Of a stretch of 50,846 nucleotides of DNA, positions 5,323 to 50,846 are shown piece after piece. The notes under the pieces are model-generated. The model was not told the DNA's origin, ran no database searches, and saw only the letters and a list, made by a program, of their open reading frames with translations. The translations under genes and the position numbers were made by a program. The DNA lies in NCBI GenBank assembly GCA_903834465.1, contig CAILJB010000067.1, positions 1 through 50,846 on the forward strand, given 5' to 3'. How positions within the stretch are numbered: position 1 is the stretch's first letter; every line of letters begins with the position of its first letter. This DNA comes from an uncultured Pseudomonadota bacterium (GTDB lineage: Bacteria; Pseudomonadota; Gammaproteobacteria; Methylococcales; Methylomonadaceae).

Positions 5323-6855
5323 TTATGACTTGTCTGCGTATAACACATATTTAGATTTACCGGATTGTTTGGCTTGATACATTGCTGAATCGGCATGTTC
5401 TAATAATTCTTCAGGTGTAGATTTATCTTGCGGATAAAGTGTCACCCCAATACTCGCGCTGACGTGTGCAATATCATTATCAAGTTGAATAGGTTCATTG
5501 ATATTATGTAACAATCTATCCAGCAATGTTTCATAATCGCAAGGATTATTCAAATCCCCAAATAGAATGACAAATTCATCGCCACCCAATCGCGCCACAG
5601 TATCATTGGCGCGTAATAATTTAGAAAAACGATGAGCAACTTCTTTTAATAATTCATCGCCTGCGCCGTGACCTAACGTGTCATTTACAGCTTTAAATCC
5701 ATCCAAATCCAAATAACAAATTGCTAATGTGTTACGGCTACGTTCTGCTCTCGCCAATGCTAGATTTAAGCGATCTGCAAGCAAAACACGATTAGGCAAT
5801 CCAGTCAGTGCATCATGATGGGCATGGTGTTCTAATTCGCGTTTGAGTTCGAGTAAATTAGCAACATTGGAAAAAACCGCAACGTAATTCGTTAGTTCGC
5901 CATATTCATTTTTGACCGAAGACAACGTTAACCATTCTTCATCGCGTGGATTATCGGCAATTTGACTATAAACTTCACCGCTCCAGTAACCATATTGTTC
6001 AAGTTCTTGCCAAATTTTTTCAAACAATGCGCCGTATTTTAAAGAAATTTTTAAATCGGGGAGATGCTGCTCCGCCGCATCAGGCAATAAATGTTGACCA
6101 ATCAAATCGGGTAAATGCTTGCCAATTAAATCTGCCGGAGACAATTTTTTTGTGCGGCTAAATGATGGATTGACTTCAATAACGTTTAAATTTTTATCAG
6201 TAATGCAAATGGCATCTAAGGTATTTTCAAATACGTTAGAGGCTAATCGCTGTTTAGCTTCAATTTTTTGACGTTCGACGATTTCCTTCATGAGCTGAAC
6301 TGTTCGATTACAGACATTGTCGTACATCGACAAAATGGCTTGAATAAGCGCATTCATTGCCTCGCTCATTTCTTGTTCGGTTTGGAGTTTGGCTTCGTCT
6401 AAGGTCGCGCCTTCTTGCATGAGTTGAACCATTTTCGCCATGCGTTTATCGCTATCTAAAATGTGAAAAGCCAGCCAGCGTGTTAAAAACGATAATATGT
6501 CTTCGACGATTTGCGTGGCACTTAGCTGACCTTCTTCGTTTTTTAGAAAAATAATTTCATCAATAAATCGACTGTGTGTTGCCTTATGTTTGAGTTCTAA
6601 TTCGTCATCACTAAAATATTGATGCCAAATACCTTCTTCGGTTTGAAAATGATAAATTGCGTAATCGGTTAATTCATTAAAAACAGAATTTAACGTGATG
6701 GAGTCTGCTTGATTAACTAATTGTTTTGCCAGTGAATTTAATAGATAGACAAGTTTTTTATGTTGCTCATCAATGATGGCAATACCCGTATCAAAATTTT
6801 CATTCCACGGAAAAATTTCAATATTGGTGACGACTGGATTATCTGCTTCTCTCAT
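5323..6855 (-). CDS. Bacteriohemerythrin-PAS-GGDEF diguanylate cyclase
   Basis: A 510-residue soluble signalling protein. Residues 14-145 form a hemerythrin domain with a complete diiron ligand set: H32, H69, E73, H90, H94, H131 and D136. A PAS domain follows (about 205-330), then a GGDEF domain with an intact GGDEF active site at 424-428. An RxxD inhibitory site (RAND) sits five residues before it, so c-di-GMP product inhibition is likely. Hemerythrin-linked cyclases are known to change activity with O2 and redox state, so an oxygen-to-c-di-GMP switch is the natural reading. The ATG follows GGGAAGG. It lies 27 bases downstream of sdhA and is probably read with it. The PAS segment contains an odd repeated HLPDL stretch. 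Confidence 0.92.
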   Translation of the reverse strand: MREADNPVVTNIEIFPWNENFDTGIAIIDEQHKKLVYLLNSLAKQLVNQADSITLNSVFNELTDYAIYHFQTEEGIWHQYFSDDELELKHKATHSRFIDEIIFLKNEEGQLSATQIVEDILSFLTRWLAFHILDSDKRMAKMVQLMQEGATLDEAKLQTEQEMSEAMNALIQAILSMYDNVCNRTVQLMKEIVERQKIEAKQRLASNVFENTLDAICITDKNLNVIEVNPSFSRTKKLSPADLIGKHLPDLIGQHLLPDAAEQHLPDLKISLKYGALFEKIWQELEQYGYWSGEVYSQIADNPRDEEWLTLSSVKNEYGELTNYVAVFSNVANLLELKRELEHHAHHDALTGLPNRVLLADRLNLALARAERSRNTLAICYLDLDGFKAVNDTLGHGAGDELLKEVAHRFSKLLRANDTVARLGGDEFVILFGDLNNPCDYETLLDRLLHNINEPIQLDNDIAHVSASIGVTLYPQDKSTPEELLEHADSAMYQAKQSGKSKYVLYADKS

Positions 6856-12979: not shown

Positions 12980-14776
12980 TTATTTCCGGACGCTCGTTTC
13001 CAGAATTCGCCACACTAATTCTTCAAAATCCATTCCAGCTTGTTTTGCTGCCATCGGCACTAAGCTATGATCCGTCATGCCGGGAACGGTGTTGACTTCA
13101 ATCAATTGTGCTTGCCCATTTTTATCGATAAAAACATCCACTCTCGCCCATCCTTGCACACCAATAATATCACTTGCTCGCAATGCCAATTGTTGTAATT
13201 GTAATTCTTGTTCAACATTCAAACCACATGGACAATGATATTGCGTGGTGGTTGAATTATATTTGGCTTCGTAGTCGTAAAATTCGCGCGGTGTTTCCAA
13301 ACGAATCACTGGCAACGCTTTACCTTGTAAAATACCAACCGTATATTCATCGCCCGTCACCCATGCTTCAGCGTAGACTTCGCAATTACACGCTAAAGCA
13401 ACTTCTAACGCGGCAACTAATTCGTCACGATTTTTCGCTTTGCTCATACCAACGCTTGAGCCTTCAAGTGCAGGTTTGACAATAATTGGAAAATCTAACG
13501 CTTCGATGCAAGCATCAATATCGTTTTCGTTTTTCAACACAAACCAATTTGGCGTTGGTAAATTCGCGCCACGCCAGCACAATTTTGTCCGTAATTTATC
13601 CATCGCAAGTGCGGAGGCTAAAACACCACTGCCCGTGTAAGGCAATCCTAAAACTTCTAACACACCTTGTAACACGCCATCTTCGCCGCCGCGTCCGTGA
13701 ATAATATTGAAAATTCTATCCACTTTAAGTTTCGCCAACGTGTCAATGACGTTCCCTGTCACATCAACAGCCAGCGCATTTACACCGCGAGAAATTAAAG
13801 CCGCATGAACCGCTGCGCCACTGCGTAATGAAACTTCACGCTCCGCTGCGTTGCCACCCATTAAAACTGCAACAGTGCCAAAATCTTCAGCGCGTTCATT
13901 TAATTTCCCCCCCACGATGCACACCTCCGTTTGTAAATTTATACCGTGTTGTTGCGCGACTTGTGTTTGTACATACGCAATCAATTGTTCAATATCTGCT
14001 GCTGTTGCCGAACCAGTGTTGATAATGAAGTTTGCGTGTTTTTCTGAAACTTGTGCGCCACCGATTTTAAAACCTTTTAAACTCGTTGCTTCAATTAAAC
14101 GCGCCGCGTAATCACCAGTTGGATTTTTGAAAACAGAGCCACAACTCGGTTGATTGGTCGGTTGTGAATTCGCGCGTTTTGCAAGTAGAGCTTTTATATT
14201 TTGTTGGCTTTCGCTTGTATCGCCGCGTTTTAATTTTAACGTTGTCGCCAAAAACCATTCGTCCGCATTTACATTAACGTGGCGATAACTAATTTCAAAT
14301 TCGCTAGCTGATTTGGTAAAAACGTCGCCACAACGATTGAGCATTTCAACTGTTTGCACAATTTCCCACGTTTCACCACCAAATGCGCCTGCGTTCATTT
14401 TTAATGCACCGCCCATTGTGCCAGGAATTCCCGCTAAAAATTCCGCACCGACTAAACCTTGTTCAGCACAAAATTTCGCGACTAAGGCACAAGGGACACC
14501 TGCTTCAACATAAATCGTTTCGTCACCGAGGCGTTGCATGGCTTTGAGGCGATTTTTCGTGTTAATTACCGTGCCGCGAATACCACCGTCACGCACTAAT
14601 AAATTACTACCTAATCCCATCCAAAACAGCGGTTCATTTTCGGGCAAACTTTGAACGAAACGAATCAAATCTGCTTTATCAGCAGGTTGATAAAATTTAT
14701 CTGCAACGCCACCCACACGCCAACTGGTATAGCTTGCAAGTGGTTCGTTATATTGAATTTGACCAGATGGTTGCAT
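12980..14776 (-). CDS. murB-ddl: Fused MurB reductase - D-Ala-D-Ala ligase
   Basis: One open frame of about 598 residues carries two full enzymes. Residues 1-293 are MurB (UDP-N-acetylenolpyruvoylglucosamine reductase): FAD-binding YTSWRVGG and GLGSNLLVRD, AGIPGTMGGALKMNAGAFGGE, the catalytic-serine region SCGSVFKNP, and a terminal TEVCIVGG. Residues about 300-599 are DdlB: TVAVLMGGNAAEREVSLRSG, HGRGGEDGVLQGVLE, the ATP-grasp core and EVNTVPGMTDHSLVP. The join falls at residues 291-300 with no stop codon and no ATG start for the ligase that would keep its first strand. In neighbouring lineages these are separate adjacent genes in the same order. A run of seven C at 13907-13913 lies exactly at the join, so a sequencing error there should be excluded. 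GTG at 14779 is an alternative start. Confidence 0.9.
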   Translation of the reverse strand: MQPSGQIQYNEPLASYTSWRVGGVADKFYQPADKADLIRFVQSLPENEPLFWMGLGSNLLVRDGGIRGTVINTKNRLKAMQRLGDETIYVEAGVPCALVAKFCAEQGLVGAEFLAGIPGTMGGALKMNAGAFGGETWEIVQTVEMLNRCGDVFTKSASEFEISYRHVNVNADEWFLATTLKLKRGDTSESQQNIKALLAKRANSQPTNQPSCGSVFKNPTGDYAARLIEATSLKGFKIGGAQVSEKHANFIINTGSATAADIEQLIAYVQTQVAQQHGINLQTEVCIVGGKLNERAEDFGTVAVLMGGNAAEREVSLRSGAAVHAALISRGVNALAVDVTGNVIDTLAKLKVDRIFNIIHGRGGEDGVLQGVLEVLGLPYTGSGVLASALAMDKLRTKLCWRGANLPTPNWFVLKNENDIDACIEALDFPIIVKPALEGSSVGMSKAKNRDELVAALEVALACNCEVYAEAWVTGDEYTVGILQGKALPVIRLETPREFYDYEAKYNSTTTQYHCPCGLNVEQELQLQQLALRASDIIGVQGWARVDVFIDKNGQAQLIEVNTVPGMTDHSLVPMAAKQAGMDFEELVWRILETSVRK

Positions 14777-14782
14777 CACGAT

Positions 14783-38201: not shown

Positions 38202-39068
38202 CTAACTTGTTTGATTTGCATTACTGATTGCGAGTGCAGCTTGATAAAGCACTTTCTTTTTGCCGCCGGTAATTTCCACGGCTAATTCCACGGCTTTTTT
38301 TACACTACATTCGGTCAATAATAATTTCAAAATACGTTCTTGTTCGAGCGTAATCGTATTTTCAGAAACATCGATTTTTGCTGCACCTTCAACGATGACA
38401 ACAAATTCACCTTTACGCATATTGGCATCGTTTTCAACTAGCGCGAGCATATCAGTCAGCGGTAATTTAACAATCGTTTCATGTAATTTGGTCAATTCGC
38501 GGGCAATGACAATGGAACGTTCCGCCGATAAAACTGCCGTCATGTCATGTAGACAATCCAAAATGCGATGACAGGATTCGTAAAAAACCCACGTTGTGGG
38601 AATGCCAGCGCGTTCAGCAAAAAATGCTTGTCGCGCGGACGAGGTTCGCGGCGTGAAGCCTTCAAACGTAAATGGGGTAATGGCAACACCTGCGGCGGAT
38701 AATGCGGCAATTAACGCACATGCACCCACAATAGGCACAACAGGTAAATTCGCTTCATGCACAGCTTTAACAACAGGCATTCCCGGATCGCTAATTAACG
38801 GCGTTCCGGCATCGGAAACTAATGCAATTGATAATCCAGCGCGTAATTTTTCGACAATCTCTAATGCGGCTTTATCTTCATTGTGTTGATGCAACGCGAT
38901 AACTTTATTACTGATACCATAGTGTTGCAGCAACATTTTGACATGGCGCGTGTCTTCGGCGGCTATTAAATCCACGATTTTCAACGTTTCAATGGCGCGA
39001 AACGTAATATCGCCTAAATTTCCAATCGGGGTCGCAACAATATATAACTTGCCTGTTTCTTGATTCAT
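38202..39068 (-). CDS. rsmI: 16S rRNA (cytidine-1402-2'-O)-methyltransferase RsmI
   Basis: A 288-residue tetrapyrrole-methylase-fold enzyme acting with RsmH on C1402 of 16S rRNA. Motifs are LYIVATPIGNLGDIT, AAEDTRHVKMLL, VSDAGTPLISDPG and FYESCHRI. The ATG at 39068 matches the family start; a 40-residue upstream extension is rejected. A TATAGT box (39105-39110, minus strand) lies at a plausible distance. In other gammaproteobacteria it neighbours lpoA and yraN; here a signalling operon intervenes. Confidence 0.95.
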   Translation of the reverse strand: MNQETGKLYIVATPIGNLGDITFRAIETLKIVDLIAAEDTRHVKMLLQHYGISNKVIALHQHNEDKAALEIVEKLRAGLSIALVSDAGTPLISDPGMPVVKAVHEANLPVVPIVGACALIAALSAAGVAITPFTFEGFTPRTSSARQAFFAERAGIPTTWVFYESCHRILDCLHDMTAVLSAERSIVIARELTKLHETIVKLPLTDMLALVENDANMRKGEFVVIVEGAAKIDVSENTITLEQERILKLLLTECSVKKAVELAVEITGGKKKVLYQAALAISNANQTS

Positions 39069-39233: not shown

Positions 39234-42200
39234 ATGCGAAAGAATCTAAAACTCAAGCAATTATCCTCGTGGTTTTCCTTGGTCGTTATACTAGCTTTAA
39301 GCGCGAATGCCTCATTTTTACTCATGATTCAACATGCTTACGATGGTGTAGTGAATGTGCAGAAACATCGACAAACCGCAATGTCGCTGGCAAATGAATT
39401 ACAACAAGAAACACGGCAACTGACGCTTTTTGTTAGAGCATACACGAGTACCGCTCAACCTCGTTATTTGATGTATTACTACGATATTTTGGCAATTCGT
39501 CAAGGCGAAAAACCTTTGCCAGAAAATTATATTCCCAGCGCGTATTGGGATATGGTCATTGCCGGTGAAATTAAACATCAATTTCCGCAAAATGGTGAGC
39601 TTCATTCACTTTCAAATCGAATGAAATCGATAGGATTTAGTGAAGAAGAATTTATCGCCTTAGATAACGTTTTTGCTGCAACCGAGGCAATGAAGCAAAT
39701 TGAACAAGTCGCTTTCGCCGCCACGCAAGGGCTTTACGATCCCAAAACCGAAGAGTTTGTTTCAGACGGTACACCGCGTTTAGATTTTGCGAATGAATTG
39801 GTCTATAGTCAAAAATACAACTTGCTAAAGTCTGATCTCGCTAAATCCGTTATCGAGCTGGTATCGATGGTTGATAATCGCACTAATACGGCTGTCATAA
39901 ATGCCGCAAAAGATTTGGAACACTGGATATTACTGACATCCGGCAGCGTGATTTTTACTTTAGTGATGGTTATGACGGCATCACGCGTGATTAGACAGCG
40001 AGTTTTACAGCCGATTGAAACGCTATCAAAAGCGGCGAAATGTTTGGAACAGGGTGACTATTCTGTCCGCGTAGAATTGAAGGAAAAATCGGGCAGTGTA
40101 GAAGAATTGATGGCACTTGGTGAAGTATTCAACAGTATGACTCAATCTATCGAAGAAGACATTGCGCGACAATACCATGTGCAGCAAGAATTACAAGCTG
40201 CCAATCAAAAAGCAGAAGATGCCACACGCGCCAAATCGATGTTTCTTGCTAACATGAGCCATGAAATTCGCACGCCGTTAAATGCCATTATTGGTATGGC
40301 GTATTTAGTATTAAAAACGCAATTAACGCCGCGCCAAAAAAACTATATTACAGAAGTACAAAATGCGGGGAAATTGTTGCTTGGTATTATCAATGACATT
40401 TTAGATTTTTCAAAAGTTGAAGCAGGCAAAATAGAATTAGAAGAATCCCATTTTGTTCTTGAAGAGGTAATCAGTAATTCACTTTCTTTATTGCGTCACC
40501 GCGCTCATGAAAAGGAAATTGAATTGTTATTCAGTGTGACCGACCCGTTATTATTGGGGGCAAGTGGTTCATTACTTGGTGATGCACTTCGTTTGGGACA
40601 AATTCTGACCAATTTGTTGTCCAATGCCATTAAATTTACGCATCAAGGTTACGTCAAACTGACGGTAAGTATTGAAGAACGTCACGATGATAAGCTATTA
40701 CTACTTTTTACGGTTATCGATACCGGAATTGGCATGTCTTCTGAGCAGGTAAAAAGATTATTTCAAGAATTCACGCAAGCAGATGGTTCAACCACTCGCA
40801 AATATGGCGGTACTGGATTGGGATTGACCATTTCTAAAAAATTTGTCGAATTGATGGGCGGTCGAATTTGGGTTGAAAGTATAGAAGGTAAGGGGACGCA
40901 GTTTAGTTTTACAGCAAATTTTTCAACCGTAACACCATCTTCTACCGATGAAATTTTATCAGGCGTTGATACATTGCGAGTATTGGTTGTTGATGACCAT
41001 TACGACACACGATTAGTGTTAGTTGATTTACTTACCGTTCTTGGTGTTGGTGCAGCGTATGAACAAAAAGTAACTTGTGTGTCTAATGGCAAGGCGGCTT
41101 TAGCGCAACTTAGAGAAGCAGCGAGTACGCATCAACCGTATGATTTATTATTGCTTGATTGGGTAATGCCTGGAATGAATGGTGGCGAAGTATTGCAAGC
41201 TCTGAAAACTGGCGACCTCTCACCGCCACAAATTGCGGTCGTTTCCGCCTACGATTCAGATATGATGCACAAAACGGCGAATGATTTTGGGGTTCAACAT
41301 TTTTTGTTAAAACCCATTTTGCCAGAATCTTTACGCAAGTTGCTTAATGAAGTGACAGGCGATACTGGGGATAAAAAAAGGAATTGCCATAAAAGCGAAT
41401 GCGAAGCTAACCTTAATGGAATGCGAGTGTTATTGGTAGAGGATAATTTTATCAATCAACTATTGGCCGTCGAATTGATGGAAACGCAAGGCATTGACGT
41501 TACGGTGGCAAACAACGGTGAAGAAGCCATTATGCAATTAGAGCAGGTCGCACCGGATTATTATCACGTCGTGTTGATGGATTTACAAATGCCGGTGATG
41601 GATGGTTATGAAGCCACACGCCGATTGCGTACTAATGCACGTTATATGAAATTACCATTAGTTGCAATGACTGCACATGCGATGACTGAAGAACGTGAAC
41701 GCTGTCAGGCTATCGGAATGAATGGACATTTGAGTAAACCCATTGAAGTAAACGATTTTTATGACACGTTAGCGCAATATTATACCCCTGCTGTAGAGAC
41801 AAATATCCGGATAAAATCGCTTGAAACTGCTCAAGCCTTACCAATTATCGCTGGTTTGGATGTTAAAGATGGTTTGTATCGCGCGGGCGGAAATCAGACC
41901 TTGTATTTACAAATGCTATCTCAATTTGCCAGTGATTTTGCTAATTGCGGCGATATTTTCGCAAATCATTTAACTAATGATGAATGGATAGAAGCTGAAC
42001 GTTTAGCGCATACTTTAAAAAGTGTCATGGGATCGTTGGGGATAAGAAAAATACCGATATTCGTCGCCGATTTTGAGAGTGCTTGTAAAAATAAACGGCT
42101 GGAATCTGCCATTGATACACTGAAAAAAATAACACGGTCACTTGCTCCCATAATTACGGCACTACAACAATTTTTTACGGTTAAACACATTGAAACAGAA

Positions 42201-42425
42201 ACCGCTACAGCCTTTACACCATCAGGCAATTTACCCGATTGTTTGCCGCAATTTATGAAAATATTAAGTGAGGGTGATTGCGATGTGATGGATTTGTGGG
42301 AGGATAATCATGATGCTTTTGCTCATGCCTTATCGCCACAAATTATGAATCAACTCCGTACCGCCATTAACAATTTCGAATTCGATGCCGCATACACGCT
42401 GTTGGCTGGATTAACTACGCGATAA
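39234..42425 (+). CDS. Hybrid sensor histidine kinase with two receivers and Hpt
   Basis: A 1063-residue inner-membrane sensor. Membrane helices at about 14-33 and 231-250 enclose a periplasmic domain of about 195 residues, helical in character, with no family I can name. A HAMP domain (252-305), a short coiled coil, HisKA with H343 in MSHEIRTPLN, and HATPase_c with DTGIGMS and GGTGLGL follow. Two receivers come next (phospho-acceptors D642 and D783, each with its acidic pair and lysine), then an Hpt domain with H926 in AHTLKSVMGSLG. All phosphotransfer residues are intact. The next gene, nine bases away, is a response regulator and the likely final acceptor. Confidence 0.92.
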   Translation: MRKNLKLKQLSSWFSLVVILALSANASFLLMIQHAYDGVVNVQKHRQTAMSLANELQQETRQLTLFVRAYTSTAQPRYLMYYYDILAIRQGEKPLPENYIPSAYWDMVIAGEIKHQFPQNGELHSLSNRMKSIGFSEEEFIALDNVFAATEAMKQIEQVAFAATQGLYDPKTEEFVSDGTPRLDFANELVYSQKYNLLKSDLAKSVIELVSMVDNRTNTAVINAAKDLEHWILLTSGSVIFTLVMVMTASRVIRQRVLQPIETLSKAAKCLEQGDYSVRVELKEKSGSVEELMALGEVFNSMTQSIEEDIARQYHVQQELQAANQKAEDATRAKSMFLANMSHEIRTPLNAIIGMAYLVLKTQLTPRQKNYITEVQNAGKLLLGIINDILDFSKVEAGKIELEESHFVLEEVISNSLSLLRHRAHEKEIELLFSVTDPLLLGASGSLLGDALRLGQILTNLLSNAIKFTHQGYVKLTVSIEERHDDKLLLLFTVIDTGIGMSSEQVKRLFQEFTQADGSTTRKYGGTGLGLTISKKFVELMGGRIWVESIEGKGTQFSFTANFSTVTPSSTDEILSGVDTLRVLVVDDHYDTRLVLVDLLTVLGVGAAYEQKVTCVSNGKAALAQLREAASTHQPYDLLLLDWVMPGMNGGEVLQALKTGDLSPPQIAVVSAYDSDMMHKTANDFGVQHFLLKPILPESLRKLLNEVTGDTGDKKRNCHKSECEANLNGMRVLLVEDNFINQLLAVELMETQGIDVTVANNGEEAIMQLEQVAPDYYHVVLMDLQMPVMDGYEATRRLRTNARYMKLPLVAMTAHAMTEERERCQAIGMNGHLSKPIEVNDFYDTLAQYYTPAVETNIRIKSLETAQALPIIAGLDVKDGLYRAGGNQTLYLQMLSQFASDFANCGDIFANHLTNDEWIEAERLAHTLKSVMGSLGIRKIPIFVADFESACKNKRLESAIDTLKKITRSLAPIITALQQFFTVKHIETETATAFTPSGNLPDCLPQFMKILSEGDCDVMDLWEDNHDAFAHALSPQIMNQLRTAINNFEFDAAYTLLAGLTTR

Positions 42426-42434
42426 GGAAACTAC

Positions 42435-43508
42435 ATGACAATATCAGAAAGTAACCGACCTGCCATTTTAGTGGTCGATGACACGCCCACTAATTTGAGT
42501 CTCATTTCAAATTTACTCAAAGATCAATATCGCATCATCGTTGCAAGCAATGGTACGAAAGCACTTGAATTGGCGAATAGTGTGATTCCGGATTTAATTT
42601 TGCTTGATGTGATGATGCCAAAAATGGATGGTTATGAAGTGTGCCGTCATTTAAAAGCAGATAAAAAAACACACAAAATTCCTGTTATTTTTCTTACAGC
42701 TAAAACAGAAATCGAAGATGAAGAATTAGGTTTTTTGGTTGGTGCAGTAGATTTTATTCATAAGCCCATTAGTCCGCCTATTGTTAAAGCGCGAGTTAAA
42801 ACACAACTCGAAGTAAAAGCCTGGCAAGATTCTCTACAAAATCGTGTTGAACAACAGCTCTTAGAAATTAACAATTTACAATATGCGTTGATTTGCGTGA
42901 TGGTGTCACTGGTCGAATTTCGCTCCGAAACCACAGGAAATCATGTTCGACGTATTCAAAACTATGTTTTGATGTTGACGAAAGAAATGGCTAAATTGTC
43001 GAAGTACAGCGCATTGCTAACACCGCACTACATTGAACAACTGGGGAAATCTGCACCGTTGCACGACATTGGAAAAATTGCAATTCCCGACACTATTTTG
43101 TTAAAACCTGACAAATTAACACCTGAAGAATTCGTCATCATGAAAACCCATGCTCAACTCGGTTGCAATATGCTTAAAAAAGCAGGCGAATACATTGGCA
43201 CACACAGTGAATTTTTAACAATCGCGATGGACATTACCTGTTATCACCATGAAAAATGGGATGGTTCAGGCTATCCAAAAGGTTTAGCTGGTAACGAAAT
43301 TCCATTGTCAGCGCGATTAGTGGCAGTTGCGGATGTGTTTGATGAACTCATTTCACACCGACCTTATCAAAAGCCGATGAATAATGAAAAGGCGATAGCC
43401 ACTATCATCGAAGGTAAAGGTACGCATTTTGATCCTGAAGTCGTAGACGCATTTATGGCAATTAAAGACGATATTTTGCACGTTGCCGCGACGTTGATGG
43501 ATAACTAA
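42435..43508 (+). CDS. Response regulator REC-HD-GYP, c-di-GMP phosphodiesterase
   Basis: A 357-residue cytoplasmic protein. The receiver has D58 in LILLDVMMPKMDGYE, and a linker helix (about 125-150) leads to an HD-GYP domain. Metal and catalytic residues are present: H210-D211 in LHDIGKIAIPD, the HHEKWDGSGYPKGL segment with GYP at 279-281, and ADVFDEL. Such proteins cleave c-di-GMP when phosphorylated. The preceding hybrid kinase should be its donor. It has an AAGGAA ribosome site. Confidence 0.93.
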   Translation: MTISESNRPAILVVDDTPTNLSLISNLLKDQYRIIVASNGTKALELANSVIPDLILLDVMMPKMDGYEVCRHLKADKKTHKIPVIFLTAKTEIEDEELGFLVGAVDFIHKPISPPIVKARVKTQLEVKAWQDSLQNRVEQQLLEINNLQYALICVMVSLVEFRSETTGNHVRRIQNYVLMLTKEMAKLSKYSALLTPHYIEQLGKSAPLHDIGKIAIPDTILLKPDKLTPEEFVIMKTHAQLGCNMLKKAGEYIGTHSEFLTIAMDITCYHHEKWDGSGYPKGLAGNEIPLSARLVAVADVFDELISHRPYQKPMNNEKAIATIIEGKGTHFDPEVVDAFMAIKDDILHVAATLMDN

Positions 43509-43525
43509 TTGTGTGAGGCAAGACT

Positions 43526-44830
43526 ATGAAAAACGTTACGAAGTGGATGTTGGCAACTATTGCCATTTTAGATGCAACAACGGCAACCGCTGCCACGGAT
43601 TTTTCACTCTTGGGAACGAATATTTCACTTTCGGGTTTTGCTACCGCAGGCTTTGCTATTTCAGATCAACGTTACAATTATCAACGTTTTTTAAATAATG
43701 ACGGAACGTTTAAGCGTGATTCTTTATTCGGTTTACAAATGGATGCCAAATTAACCGATGAGTTTAGTATTACCGTGCAAGCCAAAGTCGCGCCATCGAC
43801 GAGCAGTAACAATGGCATTGATCCTACTCTCACTTGGGCATTTTTATCTTGGCGACCGACGAATGATTTATTGTTTCGTGGTGGAAAACTGCGTGTACCG
43901 CTTTATTTGAACAGTGCTAATACTGATATTGGTGCAACATTTGATTTTGCACGCTTACCATCAGAAGTTTATGCCGCTGCACCAACAACAGATATAAACG
44001 GTGCGATGGTGAGCAAAATATGGAATCTGGATGCGGGTGAATTGACACTCGATGGTTATGTGGGAACGGCGGATGCTTACTACCGTCAAGCGGCTTACAA
44101 TTATCCGCCGTTATCGTCGGGTGCTAGTTATACGCCAATGAATATGAACGCTTATGGATCGGTGCTAACTTTTCAACACGATGACGATATTTTTCGTATT
44201 GGCGCACATGATGCCTACATCAAATTTACGGATGGCAGTACATTACCTGTCACGTTTCCTTTTGTCTCGATTATGCCTGGTGTGGGTTATTATCAAACAT
44301 CTAAAAATTTGCCAGGTTCAGGTATACCAGAAGTTTCAGTAACGCACACACTTGTTTACACAGTGGCTGCAGATATAGCATTGGATTACGGTTTTCGTAT
44401 CACGGGGGAATATGTTTGTCGTGACATGCGAAATATTTCCACAGGTCCTGGTTCACAGGGAGGATACCTTGCTTTACTCAAATCTTTCGATGCGTGGACA
44501 CCTTATGTCAGCGTGGCGCATTTACAATCGATGGATAAAACGCTTGATCTTTATAATCAAGTAAGTCGCAATCGTGTTCCCAACACAATTCCAAATGCCG
44601 CAATGCTTAATGCCGCGCAACAAGTTGGTGCGACAAGTATCGATACCTACGATCAAACTACGGTCGCGGTGGGAACAGCGTATCGACTAAATCCAACCAG
44701 TAAGTTAAAAGTTGAATGGGCAATTACCAAAATAGGTGAGGCATCGAGTTTCATCGATGCACCTGCTGGTGAGCTGTCCGGCAATAGACTCATCAATGTA
44801 TTTTCGTTTTCTTACAGCGTCGTGTTTTAA
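43526..44830 (+). CDS. Outer-membrane porin-like beta-barrel protein
   Basis: A 434-residue protein with a signal peptide (about 1-23, ending ATATAAT-like residues before DFSLLG). The body alternates short hydrophobic strands typical of outer-membrane barrels (LSGFATAGFAISDQRY, DEFSITVQAKVAP, LLFRGGKLRVPLYL). The C-terminus is aromatic, SFSYSVVF, the terminal-phenylalanine signal recognised by the Bam machinery. The substrate is unknown. It lies 17 bases after the HD-GYP gene, and a PstS-like gene follows. Confidence 0.8.
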   Translation: MKNVTKWMLATIAILDATTATAATDFSLLGTNISLSGFATAGFAISDQRYNYQRFLNNDGTFKRDSLFGLQMDAKLTDEFSITVQAKVAPSTSSNNGIDPTLTWAFLSWRPTNDLLFRGGKLRVPLYLNSANTDIGATFDFARLPSEVYAAAPTTDINGAMVSKIWNLDAGELTLDGYVGTADAYYRQAAYNYPPLSSGASYTPMNMNAYGSVLTFQHDDDIFRIGAHDAYIKFTDGSTLPVTFPFVSIMPGVGYYQTSKNLPGSGIPEVSVTHTLVYTVAADIALDYGFRITGEYVCRDMRNISTGPGSQGGYLALLKSFDAWTPYVSVAHLQSMDKTLDLYNQVSRNRVPNTIPNAAMLNAAQQVGATSIDTYDQTTVAVGTAYRLNPTSKLKVEWAITKIGEASSFIDAPAGELSGNRLINVFSFSYSVVF

Positions 44831-44841
44831 GGCGAATGGTT

Positions 44842-45255
44842 ATGAAGATGAAAATTAACATATTGTCGCTCGTGGTATCTTTAGGATTTGCAAAAGTTCA
44901 GGCAGGGGAAATTGTAATAATTGGAAATAGCAATGTTCCGAAGATGGATATAACGATGGTTCAAAAAATTTATACTGGAAAAGTTATTTCAGTGGAAGGT
45001 ATTAACGTAACACCTGTTGCAGTGAAAGCCGGAATGTCAGAACGCAATCGTTTTTTACAAAATTTTATGAATGAAGATGAAGAAAAATATACCGCTTATT
45101 GGACAGTACGTCGTTATATCGGTAAAGGTACGCCACCAAACGAATTAGATAGCACAACAGACGTTATTCGTTATGTGAAACAAACATCTGGTGCGGTAGG
45201 CTATATTGATGAAACACAACTAGAAGCAGATACAAATGTTATTACCCGAAAATAA
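44842..45255 (+). CDS. Small PstS-like periplasmic substrate-binding protein
   Basis: A 137-residue exported protein with a signal peptide (about 1-21, ending VQAGE). The body has VPKMDITMVQKIYTGKVISVEG, VKAGMSERNRFLQNFM and the late TSGAVGYID. These are the conserved elements of short PBP-like proteins annotated as phosphate ABC transporter substrate-binding, roughly one lobe of PstS. No permease genes are nearby, so a sensory or carrier role beside the porin and kinase is more likely than classical transport. The ATG at 44842 is chosen for its spacing from AAGGCG. It overlaps yraN by 20 bases. Confidence 0.75.
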   Translation: MKMKINILSLVVSLGFAKVQAGEIVIIGNSNVPKMDITMVQKIYTGKVISVEGINVTPVAVKAGMSERNRFLQNFMNEDEEKYTAYWTVRRYIGKGTPPNELDSTTDVIRYVKQTSGAVGYIDETQLEADTNVITRK

Positions 45256-45604
45256 ACCTAAAGCCGCTCATTTACTACGCGGTGAATCCGCCGAAAGGCA
45301 AGCCTGTGATTTTTTAATTTCTCAAGGTTTAACGTTAGTAGTGCGTAATTTTCGTTGCATTCACGGCGAATTAGATTTGATTATGAAAGATGGCGAAACA
45401 CTGGTAATTGTGGAAGTTCGTTTTCGTAAAAATGCGAAATATGGCAGTGCGCTAGAAAGCGTGGATGTTAGAAAACAAACGAAAATCAGTGCCGCGACCG
45501 AATTTTATTTAAATACGTTGGAAGGCGAAATGCCGCGAATACGTTTTGATGTTATGGGAATTTCAGGAAACGGCGAATTGCAATGGGTACAAAATGCGTT
45601 TTGA
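45236..45604 (+). CDS. yraN: YraN/UPF0102 nuclease-fold protein
   Basis: A 122-residue protein of the UPF0102 family. The restriction-endonuclease-like core is seen as NFRCIHGELDLIMKDG and VIVEVRFRK, followed by KQTKISAATEFYL. Its exact role is unresolved. In relatives it sits near rsmI and lpoA. Here its start lies inside the preceding gene, so it appears to be driven by the signalling operon. Confidence 0.9.
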   Translation: MLLPENKPKAAHLLRGESAERQACDFLISQGLTLVVRNFRCIHGELDLIMKDGETLVIVEVRFRKNAKYGSALESVDVRKQTKISAATEFYLNTLEGEMPRIRFDVMGISGNGELQWVQNAF

Positions 45605-48386: not shown

Positions 48387-50846
48387 TTAAGCGGTTGTAA
48401 AATTGGTAATGCTAAGACCCGATACAACGCCAATTGTGCCAATTTGTTTGGAATCACCATCTGTCCAGTTTCCATCGGAATCATAATAAATTGCACCTGT
48501 GTCTGATGCGACGGCATAGTGCGGCACTTGCGGTGCAGCTGCACGTTGATCTCCTATACTAACGCCTAATGTCCCTAAGTTTGTAGTGGTATCAAAGATA
48601 ATTTCGTGAGCAACACCGGCGTAAACAGTTCCGCCTTGTGTAATCGCAACGGTGGGGGCAACACCAGCTCCCGTTATGGATGCTGATAAATCTGTAACAT
48701 TAGTAGCCGCCGTTGTACTAGTAAATATAATTGTACCGTTAGAATTTGAACCTACTGTGTAGCCAGACACAGTACCAGTTAAAGTCAAACCAGTTACAGA
48801 ACCACCAGCCAATACCGAACCAATTTCAGTTGCTGTGTATGCAGAACTTCCATCAGAAGTAACAGTCAAACCGGCAATTGTTATAGTTCCAACAGCAGCA
48901 GAACTAAAACCAGCCAAAGTGACAGATGCACTTTCAGTAGTAGCAGCTATTTGAGCAACCGTTTTTGCAACAGCACCAGTTGTACCACCCAATAGGATAA
49001 TATCTGTTCCATGAACAAAATTGGTGATGGTATCGGTAGAACTTGTACCTAGAACAATCGTATCAGCACTAGAGTGTGATGCCATTAAGTTGATTGTATC
49101 GTTACCTGCACCGCCATTGATTGTCGCGCCAATATCTTTTACATTAATAACATCAGCATGCGTCCCGCCAATGATTGTACTTGTTGCTGCACCACCAAGA
49201 ATGGTCAAATCATTATCATCAGAAGACGCATCAATTTTAGTAATACCAGATTGGCTCGCATCAACCATTGTGATGCCAGCATCAGCAGCATCACTACCTA
49301 AAGTAATCGTGCCAGCATTTACAGTAGATTCAATCATTAAGTTTTCAATGTTATTTATATGCGCGAAATCAGCATCGACAATATCACCTGCCGTTGTTGG
49401 TATTGTGGGTATTCCACCTACAATATCTAATGTATCGTTACCATCACCACCATCAAGAGTAACAATAGATGCCAAAGCTGTGTGATCCATAATATCGATA
49501 ACATCATTATCTGAACCCGCAGAGATACTATCTGCCCCGCCGCCGCTAACAATCGTATCTGAACCGCCGCCGCCAGAAATGCTATCTGCACCTATACCGC
49601 CGACAAGCATATCATTTCCACCATTGCCTATGATTGTGTTGCCACCATCGCCGCCAATAATAGTATCTGCGCCTGCACTACCGGTAATGCTATTGATGCC
49701 AGCAGACCCTGTTGTCGTAAATCCTCCTGCGGTCACTGTAATGGCTAAAATGCCATTGTTTCCCACGACATGATAATCTGCTGTGGATGCTGTTGAGACA
49801 AATGCTGTCGCTCCATTAGCAATAAGCAACCCATCAGTACCCGCAACAAAATCAGTGATAGCAGCTGTTCCGGCATTTACAACAAACAAATCACTACCTC
49901 CACCACCGGTAAGCGTATTCGCCCCTGAACTTACCGTAATACTGTCAGAACCAGAAGACCCCGTTATCAATGAACCTGCCGTCGTCACTGTAATGTCTAA
50001 AATACCGCCATTATTCACGGCAGAATAATCCGCAGTTGTTGATATGGTCGAAACAAATGCGGTTGCACCATTGCCAATATTTAACGTGTCGCTACCAACA
50101 TCAAAATCAGTAATAGTCGCTGTTCCTGCATTTATATTAAACGTATCACTGCCTGCCCCACCGGTAAGTGTATCATTCCCACCCCCGCTGGTGATGGTAT
50201 CTGCACCAGCCCCTCCAATAATTTGGTCAGAACCTGAGCCACCCGTCACGCTGAATTTGCCGTCAGTTTCCAAATTACCATCGAATGTTAAAAAGTTCGA
50301 TCCTGTCAATGCAGAACCATCGATTTTCAACGTATTGCTTGCAGGAACAACTGTATCCTTCGTGATAATCACGTTACCCGAAACATCTGCTAGGGAAATG
50401 GTCGTATTGTTATTTGCAAACGTTACGTCTGTTGCGGCGGTAATAGTAATTAGATTGGAAGGTGACACATTGCTCAATCCAGTATCGGTTATAGTTCCGT
50501 TTTTTATCGCTCCTAATACAGTTAGAATATCTGAGCCTGTGCCGGAGAGAGACGTAACACTATTTGCGTTAATAACACCCGTTGTTGCCGTATCCATTGC
50601 CATTAAAGTGGCTGCTGCCACTGACGTATCGGTGACGGTCAATGTTGCAGATGAATTTAATGCAGCTCCCAACTGTGTAAATTGAGCCGCCGTTAAACTA
50701 ATTGAACCTGTAATACCGCCAACCGAAACGTTTGAAATGTAAGTAATCAAATTATCTATCTGCGTGGGTGTTGCACCAGTCGCATCTACTGTTGCACTTC
50801 CAGCCGCGAAATCAGATGCAGCATTTAGAAAATCACTAATTGTGTA
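48387..50846 (-). CDS. Large RTX calcium-binding repeat protein, C-terminal part
   Basis: The frame stays open to the right edge, so the N-terminus is missing; about 819 residues are seen. Gly/Asp nonapeptide repeats of the GGxGxDx type occur in several blocks (near 50.2, 49.9 and 49.6 kb), for example GGAGADTITSGGGNDTLTGG, and would form calcium-filled beta-rolls. Two adjacent units of about 85 residues are near-copies (TITDFDVGSDTLNIGNGATA and AITDFVAGTDGLLIANGATA). The C-terminus, TGAIYYDSDGNWTDGD to the last ITNFTTA, resembles the ends of type-I-secreted RTX proteins. The composition is Thr/Ser/Gly-rich with almost no Cys. A surface adhesin or S-layer-like protein is plausible; no enzyme domain is seen. 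Confidence 0.85.
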   Translation of the reverse strand, partial: YTISDFLNAASDFAAGSATVDATGATPTQIDNLITYISNVSVGGITGSISLTAAQFTQLGAALNSSATLTVTDTSVAAATLMAMDTATTGVINANSVTSLSGTGSDILTVLGAIKNGTITDTGLSNVSPSNLITITAATDVTFANNNTTISLADVSGNVIITKDTVVPASNTLKIDGSALTGSNFLTFDGNLETDGKFSVTGGSGSDQIIGGAGADTITSGGGNDTLTGGAGSDTFNINAGTATITDFDVGSDTLNIGNGATAFVSTISTTADYSAVNNGGILDITVTTAGSLITGSSGSDSITVSSGANTLTGGGGSDLFVVNAGTAAITDFVAGTDGLLIANGATAFVSTASTADYHVVGNNGILAITVTAGGFTTTGSAGINSITGSAGADTIIGGDGGNTIIGNGGNDMLVGGIGADSISGGGGSDTIVSGGGADSISAGSDNDVIDIMDHTALASIVTLDGGDGNDTLDIVGGIPTIPTTAGDIVDADFAHINNIENLMIESTVNAGTITLGSDAADAGITMVDASQSGITKIDASSDDNDLTILGGAATSTIIGGTHADVINVKDIGATINGGAGNDTINLMASHSSADTIVLGTSSTDTITNFVHGTDIILLGGTTGAVAKTVAQIAATTESASVTLAGFSSAAVGTITIAGLTVTSDGSSAYTATEIGSVLAGGSVTGLTLTGTVSGYTVGSNSNGTIIFTSTTAATNVTDLSASITGAGVAPTVAITQGGTVYAGVAHEIIFDTTTNLGTLGVSIGDQRAAAPQVPHYAVASDTGAIYYDSDGNWTDGDSKQIGTIGVVSGLSITNFTTA

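What the first reader, a model, noticed from the sequence alone, without database searches (positions are those of the whole stretch)
39234..45604. Kinase / HD-GYP / porin / PstS-like operon: candidate envelope-to-c-di-GMP sensing system
Five plus-strand genes are packed with gaps of 9-17 bases or overlaps. The first two encode an intact phosphorelay (H343 to a receiver aspartate to H926, then D58 of the HD-GYP protein). The next two encode a barrel protein and a single-lobe PstS-like protein without any ABC permease. A substrate-binding protein and pore next to a sensor suggest that ligand entering through the porin is bound by the small protein and presented to the periplasmic domain (residues about 34-230), lowering c-di-GMP. 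The parts are seen directly; the circuit is inferred.
Basis: partly seen in the sequence, partly recalled or inferred. Interest (0 to 1): 0.75.

Follow-up and report, generated by a model that had tools for sequence, protein, structure and literature searches.

The report
Porin-linked sensor operon controlling c-di-GMP
A methane-oxidising bacterium carries a four-gene operon in which an outer-membrane pore and a small periplasmic protein probably feed a sensor kinase and a c-di-GMP-degrading enzyme; it looks like a kinase version of the Vibrio VpvABC biofilm sensor, and relatives of the pore-plus-small-protein pair sit beside several other kinds of bacterial signalling proteins.

Summary
Four plus-strand genes encode a hybrid kinase (H343, D642, D783, H926), a REC-HD-GYP protein (D58, intact HD-GYP), a porin-like barrel and a 139-aa single-lobe PstS-like protein. 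The fifth gene, yraN, is not part of it: in 10 of 17 congeners it lies beside rsmI, and the block sits between them here. Two of 17 congeners have the same four genes in order; a third has the kinase at a contig end, a fourth decayed pieces.

The small protein occurs in 105 of 370 gammaproteobacterial genomes. In 83 of 85 classified loci a same-strand porin is beside it; in 50 of those 83 a kinase, chemoreceptor or GGDEF/EAL protein adjoins the pair. Its tree tracks transducer class (7 changes, shuffled mean 39.8). One such wiring is in print: VpvABC (PMC12456836). This is a kinase/HD-GYP variant.

The circuit remains inferred.

The parts
39234..42425 (+). Hybrid histidine kinase, 1063 aa: hydrophobic segment about 13-33, presumed periplasmic region about 34-230, hydrophobic segment about 231-250, weak HAMP, HisKA (H343), HATPase_c, REC1 (D642), REC2 (D783), Hpt (H926)
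42435..43508 (+). REC-HD-GYP response regulator, 357 aa (D58; HDIGK 210; HHEKWDGSGYP 271), predicted c-di-GMP phosphodiesterase
43526..44830 (+). Porin-like outer-membrane barrel, 434 aa, C-terminal F; distant homologue of porins in porin/small-protein/diguanylate-cyclase operons of the same order
   Evidence: no Pfam match
44836..45255 (+). Single-lobe PstS-like periplasmic protein, 139 aa, with the family signature F73, W89, F/Y94, G96, P101, G122, Y123
45236..45604 (+). yraN (UPF0102): downstream neighbour overlapping by 20 bp, NOT part of the system
38202..39068 (-). rsmI (listed ORF reaches 39188; an internal ATG at 39068 is the likelier start): left flank, not part of the system

Best explanation
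This is an envelope sensing system in which an outer-membrane porin and a small single-lobe PstS-derived periplasmic protein form the input, and a hybrid kinase plus HD-GYP phosphodiesterase form the output. Most likely the small protein works with the porin, through which a still unknown solute or envelope cue enters, and its state is passed to the inner-membrane kinase. The kinase then relays phosphate from H343 to a receiver aspartate to H926 to D58 of the HD-GYP protein, changing c-di-GMP hydrolysis. Shown here: gene content, order, intact phosphorelay and HD-GYP residues, predicted fold of the small protein, recurrence of the pair beside transducers, and co-inheritance of the small protein with transducer class. 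Inferred: that the pair is the input, any physical contact, the ligand, and the direction of the c-di-GMP change. Precedents: VpvABC, in print as a predicted three-component module (PMC12456836, passages and sections read), and binding protein GltB needed for activation of kinase GtrS (PMC7927077, only the start of its abstract seen in a listing).
For: Same four-gene order in L031 (porin duplicated) and L032. Same-strand porin within two genes of the small protein in 83 of 85 classified loci; a transducer adjoins the pair in 50 of 83; of genes of at least 150 aa, 52 of 132 beside the pair are transducers against 4 of 174 more than three genes away (Fisher p 7e-18). Transducer class changes 7 times among 90 labelled rows of the small-protein tree (shuffled mean 39.8, lowest 34 in 200); 59 rows of the class-level loci plus the window: 7 against 25.9, lowest 20. 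All 6 HD-GYP proteins detected in the 144 small-protein loci lie next to a kinase beside a porin/small-protein pair, in three layouts. Porin and small-protein genes are tightly coupled (median gap -1; 137 of 143 under 50 bases).
Against: 33 of 83 pairs have no adjacent transducer by my HMMs, so the pair may do something else; counted with these rows the class signal is weaker (39 changes for all groups, shuffled mean 74.4; HK/HDGYP 11 against 22.6). Single pairs adjoin genes that I read by eye as transport genes: an ABC exporter-like protein (L120), a FeoB-like protein (L177), an antiporter-like protein (L168) and peptide ABC ATPases (L113). The kinase's sensor domain mostly occurs without the pair; one HD-GYP gene found in those loci (L232) has no pair nearby. 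Of 6 pair-linked transducers scanned, one has dCache_3, one a sub-threshold dCache_1, and four no recognised periplasmic sensor, so no shared docking domain is evident. The phosphate loop is lost, so a bound ligand is not established. The window's small protein is 16-28% identical to the other subfamilies.
Confidence: 0.52

Rival explanations
1. Porin and small protein are outputs or passengers: an uptake or scavenging pair whose expression or use is tuned by the kinase/HD-GYP pair, not its input.
For: 33 of 83 pairs have no adjacent transducer, and the porin/small-protein link is tighter than the link to transducers (83 of 85 against 50 of 83). A few pairs adjoin genes that look like transporters by eye (L113, L120, L168, L177).
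Against: No permease among the window genes of the operon or its scanned flanks; permeases were not searched systematically elsewhere. Chemoreceptors and GGDEF/EAL proteins, which do not regulate genes directly, are the commonest neighbours. Class tracking by the small protein.
Confidence: 0.23
2. The small protein is a periplasmic plug or assembly factor of the porin; the kinase senses porin state or envelope stress, and the small protein never meets the kinase.
For: Near-obligate pairing with the porin (83 of 85); one lobe without a PstS-type pocket; four long proteins carry the domain at their C-terminus, each next to a porin.
Against: Would not by itself explain why the small protein's phylogeny follows transducer class, unless the genes are merely inherited as a block.
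Confidence: 0.2
3. Chance adjacency of two unrelated gene pairs.
For: Only 2 of 17 congeners hold the whole set.
Against: Kinase/HD-GYP/porin/small-protein linkage appears in three layouts (L031/L032; L041/L050/L059; L160), and the enrichment.
Confidence: 0.05

Closest known systems
VpvABC of Vibrio cholerae (PMC12456836: abstract, sections 14 and 29, part 1 of section 15 and a passage of the introduction seen; PMC8754643: passages seen)
   Same: Porin plus small periplasmic binding protein in an operon with a c-di-GMP output; the paper calls it a predicted three-component module, and says vpvAB occurs without vpvC in many species and may be a conserved sensing unit. Operons of that layout (porin, small protein, GGDEF) occur in this order of bacteria, and their porins and small proteins are homologous to the window's.
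   Different: Output here is a hybrid kinase plus REC-HD-GYP instead of a diguanylate cyclase. Direct sequence comparison with V. cholerae VpvA/VpvB was not made; no search here returned that record.
RpfC/RpfG (recalled; only a search listing with abstract starts seen)
   Same: Hybrid kinase with receiver and Hpt domains next to a REC-HD-GYP phosphodiesterase.
   Different: Different input: two hydrophobic segments with a presumed periplasmic domain, plus porin and small protein. An rpfF gene was not searched for; the scanned flanking genes are rsmI, yraN and an SLT-domain gene.
PstS (phosphate ABC receptor)
   Same: Fold of one lobe.
   Different: Single lobe, S-G-S/T phosphate loop lost, no PstCAB among the adjacent genes scanned; the genome's one PF12849 match at E up to 0.01 is a full-length protein on another contig.
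TorT-TorS, LuxP-LuxQ (recalled) and GltB-GtrS (PMC7927077, abstract start)
   Same: Binding protein signalling to a sensor kinase.
   Different: From memory those are two-lobed binding proteins, and I recall none encoded as a pair with a porin of this family.

Membership tests
VpvABC system | porin gene | tested here: met
   barrel protein homologous to porins of porin/small-protein/GGDEF operons L036 and L038 (blastp 20-21%, E 4e-15 to 1e-17)
VpvABC system | small periplasmic binding protein | tested here: met
   homologous to the small proteins of GGDEF operons; direct comparison with V. cholerae VpvB not made
VpvABC system | membrane diguanylate cyclase as third gene | tested here: not met
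   kinase plus REC-HD-GYP instead
PstS phosphate receptor | two lobes forming a cleft | tested here: not met
   139 aa, one lobe
PstS phosphate receptor | phosphate loop S-G-S/T in this lobe (residue roles recalled) | tested here: not met
   profile alignment puts s-p-l against S-G-S of 4exl; commonest letters of 143 rows at these columns are S 34%, P 46%, L 37%; the window reads M-S-E there
PstS phosphate receptor | PstCAB permease adjacent | tested here: not met
   adjacent genes scanned are rsmI, the four operon genes, yraN and an SLT-domain gene
RpfC/RpfG | hybrid kinase with receiver and Hpt beside REC-HD-GYP | tested here: met
RpfC/RpfG | RpfC-type multi-TM input region (recalled) | tested here: not met
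   crude hydropathy scan finds two hydrophobic segments, at about 13-33 and 231-250
RpfC/RpfG | rpfF neighbour (recalled) | not tested
   no search for rpfF was made
BarA or TorS | NCBIfam equivalog cut-off | tested here: not met
   BarA 445 of 890 bits, TorS 413 of 676 bits
HD-GYP phosphodiesterase | HD and GYP motifs | tested here: met
HD-GYP phosphodiesterase | c-di-GMP hydrolysis | not testable with these tools
   needs an assay

The most novel reading that the evidence does not exclude
The porin plus single-lobe PstS-like pair is a general interchangeable outer-membrane antenna that Gammaproteobacteria attach to the main classes of transmembrane transducer (kinases with HD-GYP or other regulators, chemoreceptors, diguanylate cyclases and GGDEF-EAL proteins), with the small protein acting as a periplasmic messenger that does not use a PstS-type ligand cleft. 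VpvABC would be one instance of it, and the window operon an independent recruitment.
Probability: 0.45. Interest if true: 0.7.

Novelty: new variant of a known kind. Interest (0 to 1): 0.5.

Why it matters
How outer-membrane events reach c-di-GMP enzymes is poorly understood, and the signal of VpvABC is described in print as unknown. If the pair is a shared input for kinases, chemoreceptors and cyclases, the loci catalogued here make that testable by comparison and by swapping, and would give a signalling role to small proteins that public records call 'phosphate ABC transporter substrate-binding protein'.

Tried and rejected
yraN as a member of the operon: rejected. Phosphate sensing in the PstS manner: rejected as the default reading. 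Sensor domain as the dedicated partner of the small protein: not supported. BarA, TorS or NosR identity: scores far below the curated cut-offs. Structure of the kinase sensor domain: model useless (pLDDT 42); no solved relative by sequence (best E 0.76). Porin: no solved relative by sequence up to E 1. Sequence check against V. cholerae VpvB: no such record among the hits, and no Vibrio among the 13 control genomes named. Literature (an open-licence library only): searches returned no paper; two returned 11 and 4 papers, none with a relevant title, none opened; others returned the VpvABC papers. That the chemoreceptor and kinase versions are not in print rests on these searches only.

Limits of the survey. 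(E up to 1e-5, completeness 90 or more) matched 105 of 370 genomes, 102 of them outside the family; I fetched one place from each of 88 of these 102, mostly leaving out those whose matches were too weak to be listed. Three of the 88 loci (L146, L155, L161) were dropped because my ORF filter lost the small protein, leaving 85. Background genes come from the same stretches of up to 12 kb. The tree has 145 columns for 143 rows, and 60 of 140 inner branches are open; 52 'none' rows and 1 'mixed' row were not counted in the 90; loci L033, L058 and duplicates L060, L064, L072 were left out before, as were rows under 90 aa; rows include paralogues. The 59-row count also holds those of the 12 extra loci (L193-L204) that carried a label. 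The survey is centred on the small protein, so it says nothing of porins without it.

Full report
The thing itself. Four genes on the + strand, 39234-45255, are separated by 9, 17 and 5 bases. Gene 1 is a hybrid histidine kinase with two hydrophobic segments (about 13-33 and 231-250), a presumed periplasmic region between them, a sub-threshold HAMP match, HisKA, HATPase_c, two receivers and an Hpt domain. The phosphorelay residues H343, D642, D783 and H926 are present. Gene 2 has a receiver with D58 and an HD-GYP domain with both motifs intact. Gene 3 is a porin-like barrel with no Pfam, NCBIfam or PDB match by sequence; 142 of 150 members of its family longer than 300 aa end in phenylalanine. 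Gene 4 has no Pfam match of its own, but a 24-row profile finds PstS chains at E 5e-9, 11 of 24 members hit PF12849 weakly (best E 3e-5), and an AlphaFold model (pLDDT 88) matches PstS over about half of its length. It is one PstS lobe.

Where it sits. The organism belongs to the Methylococcales. Sister loci found by name are Methylomonas, Methylovulum, Methylobacter and unnamed Methylococcaceae; the genome G020, of the window's own family, holds a contig of 14,468 bases, the length of the Methylobacter record behind L072, so the family is that of Methylobacter. yraN is found in 40 of 41 relatives. In 10 of 17 congeners it lies immediately next to a divergent rsmI (L238, L239, L241-L245, L247, L248, L250); in the other 7, rsmI is not within the 1.5 kb held. 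In the window the four-gene block lies between these two genes. In G017 and G002, which carry the block, yraN is on another contig; in G017 the block ends beside rsmI, in convergent orientation. So yraN is a neighbour, not a member.

Conservation among close relatives. Of 17 congeners, G017 (L031) has the whole set in the same order with a duplicated porin, and G002 (L032) has it with the 5' end of the kinase on a second contig. G015 has the kinase orthologue at a contig end, so its downstream genes cannot be judged. G009 has only a porin fragment with a stop and a small-protein gene split over two frames, a decaying remnant away from the rsmI-yraN site. The system is accessory and patchy.

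A recurrent module. The small protein occurs in 29 of 61 relatives and in 105 of 370 gammaproteobacterial genomes, with up to 8 copies in one genome. I fetched one locus from each of 88 of the 102 matching genomes outside the family and could classify 85. A same-strand porin lies within two genes of the small protein in 83 of 85. Next to the pair lies a chemoreceptor (18 same strand, 2 opposite), GGDEF-EAL (14 same strand), GGDEF (4 same, 1 opposite), kinase (3 same, 7 opposite), both GGDEF-EAL and an opposite kinase (1), or nothing recognised (33). Of genes of at least 150 aa, 52 of 132 immediate neighbours are transducers, against 4 of 174 more than three genes away (Fisher p 7e-18). Porin and small-protein genes overlap or nearly touch (median gap -1; 137 of 143 under 50 bases). 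Neighbours that I read by eye include transporter-like proteins beside L113, L120, L168 and L177, which speak for an uptake role in some pairs. Named plasmid examples, 5 looked at: Caballeronia (hypothetical protein in the porin position, small protein, EAL protein) and Pseudoalteromonas (porin, small protein, chemoreceptor on the opposite strand) have transducers; an Alteromonas pair and a Vibrio copy have no signalling gene annotated beside them; the Photobacterium record has no annotation there.

The pair is inherited with its transducer. On a tree of 143 small proteins, three transducer classes over 90 labelled rows need 7 changes (shuffled mean 39.8, lowest 34 in 200 shuffles). With only the rows of the class-level loci and the window (59 rows) it is 7 against 25.9 (lowest 20). 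If the unlabelled rows are counted as a class of their own the clustering is weaker but present: 39 changes against 74.4, and for single groups 17 against 37.4 (GGDEF/EAL), 11 against 22.6 (HK/HDGYP), 12 against 21.7 (MCP). Gene order (porin first or second) needs 6 changes against 34.4. The window protein and its two orthologues form a starred set of 3; the nearest outside rows are far (path 2.45 or more). All 6 HD-GYP proteins detected in 144 small-protein loci sit next to a kinase beside a pair: L031 and L032 (kinase, HD-GYP, porin, small protein), L041, L050 and L059 (porin, small protein, kinase, HD-GYP) and L160 (divergent). One more HD-GYP gene turned up in a locus fetched for the sensor domain (L232), without a pair. 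The window genome has a second pair, with a different kinase.

What the small protein is not. In PstS this lobe carries part of the phosphate site (residue roles recalled). The profile alignment sets s-p-l against the S-G-S of a PstS. At those columns the commonest letters in 143 rows are S 34%, P 46%, L 37%, while a different set is near-invariant: F73 97%, W89 99%, F94 91% (Y in the window), G96 98%, P101 98%, G122 94%, Y123 92%. The genome's one PF12849 match is a full-length protein on another contig. So phosphate binding in the PstS manner is unlikely, and the conserved W-F/Y-G-P positions are a better candidate for a protein or other ligand contact (inference).

The kinase's sensor domain is not special to the pair. 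It occurs in 12 of 61 relatives at 15 places. Five rows are the window gene and its orthologues; 10 are others, in kinases, chemoreceptors, GGDEF proteins and one unlabelled protein. None of the 9 whose surroundings I fetched has a porin or small protein of these families nearby (L227-L235; two of them lie near contig ends). The tenth (G021, L056) has a pair 3.7 kb upstream on the same strand, with another GGDEF protein in between. Of 6 pair-linked transducers scanned with Pfam, L051 has dCache_3, L045 a sub-threshold dCache_1, and L034, L036, L039 and L041 no recognised periplasmic sensor.

Comparison with what is known. The VpvABC system of V. cholerae is described in print as a predicted three-component module of porin, periplasmic binding protein and diguanylate cyclase, with an unknown signal (PMC12456836, introduction passage); the same paper reports vpvAB without vpvC in many species and suggests a conserved sensing unit (section 14). 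Operons of that layout exist in this order of bacteria (L036, L038, L046, L061, L063, L065-L068, L070, L071; L069 with the cyclase split in two frames; L062 has two pairs and no cyclase within its stretch; L060, L064 and L072 are second copies of L046, L038 and L036), and their porins and small proteins are homologous to the window's. The input half is thus a known kind; the kinase/HD-GYP output is the variant, resembling RpfC/RpfG wiring (recalled). Chemoreceptor and kinase partners of the pair were not found in print in searches.

Verdict. Observation confirmed apart from yraN and one gap. Interpretation partly supported: input module and c-di-GMP output are likely; phosphate ligand, contact with the sensor and sign of the response are not shown. 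New variant of a known kind, with a broader pattern that deserves follow-up.

Noticed in passing
L152:4231-5937 (+), L193:5241-7265 (-), L194:5367-7097 (-), L195:5483-7174 (-): Four genomes carry the small protein as the C-terminal domain of a 563-674 aa protein. L152, the only one scanned, has a DnaJ domain at 127-186 (E 6e-7); by eye all four have a similar N-terminal part, one hydrophobic segment and a long linker, and each is next to a porin: a natural membrane-tethered version.
   Followed up: partly
L039:8541-13237 (own genome, contig C76): Second porin/small-protein pair of the same genome, followed by a kinase and then a protein with a weak class-V aminotransferase match instead of the HD-GYP regulator seen at the related L041 and L059.
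   Followed up: partly
window 12980-14779 (-): One 599-aa ORF holds both MurB-type and D-Ala-D-Ala ligase domains inside a cell-division/peptidoglycan gene cluster: a MurB-Ddl fusion, if the frame is right.
   Followed up: no
window 5323-6855 (-): Hemerythrin-PAS-GGDEF protein, perhaps an oxygen-responsive diguanylate cyclase.
   Followed up: no
window 48387-50750 (-): RTX-repeat protein (HemolysinCabind, 4 stretches), a possible surface protein about 3 kb from the operon.
   Followed up: no
L033:262-926 (+): G009 keeps only a porin fragment with an in-frame stop and a small-protein gene split over two frames near a contig end: decaying remnant of the window operon.
   Followed up: partly
L225 and L226: In G015 and G002 the kinase orthologue is preceded on the same strand by two kinase-labelled genes and a receiver gene, and then by a divergent kinase-labelled gene: a large signalling array.
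   Followed up: no
L268: A small-protein gene followed by a hypothetical protein in the porin position on an Alteromonas mediterranea plasmid lies beside a type IV CRISPR (csf) cluster.
   Followed up: no
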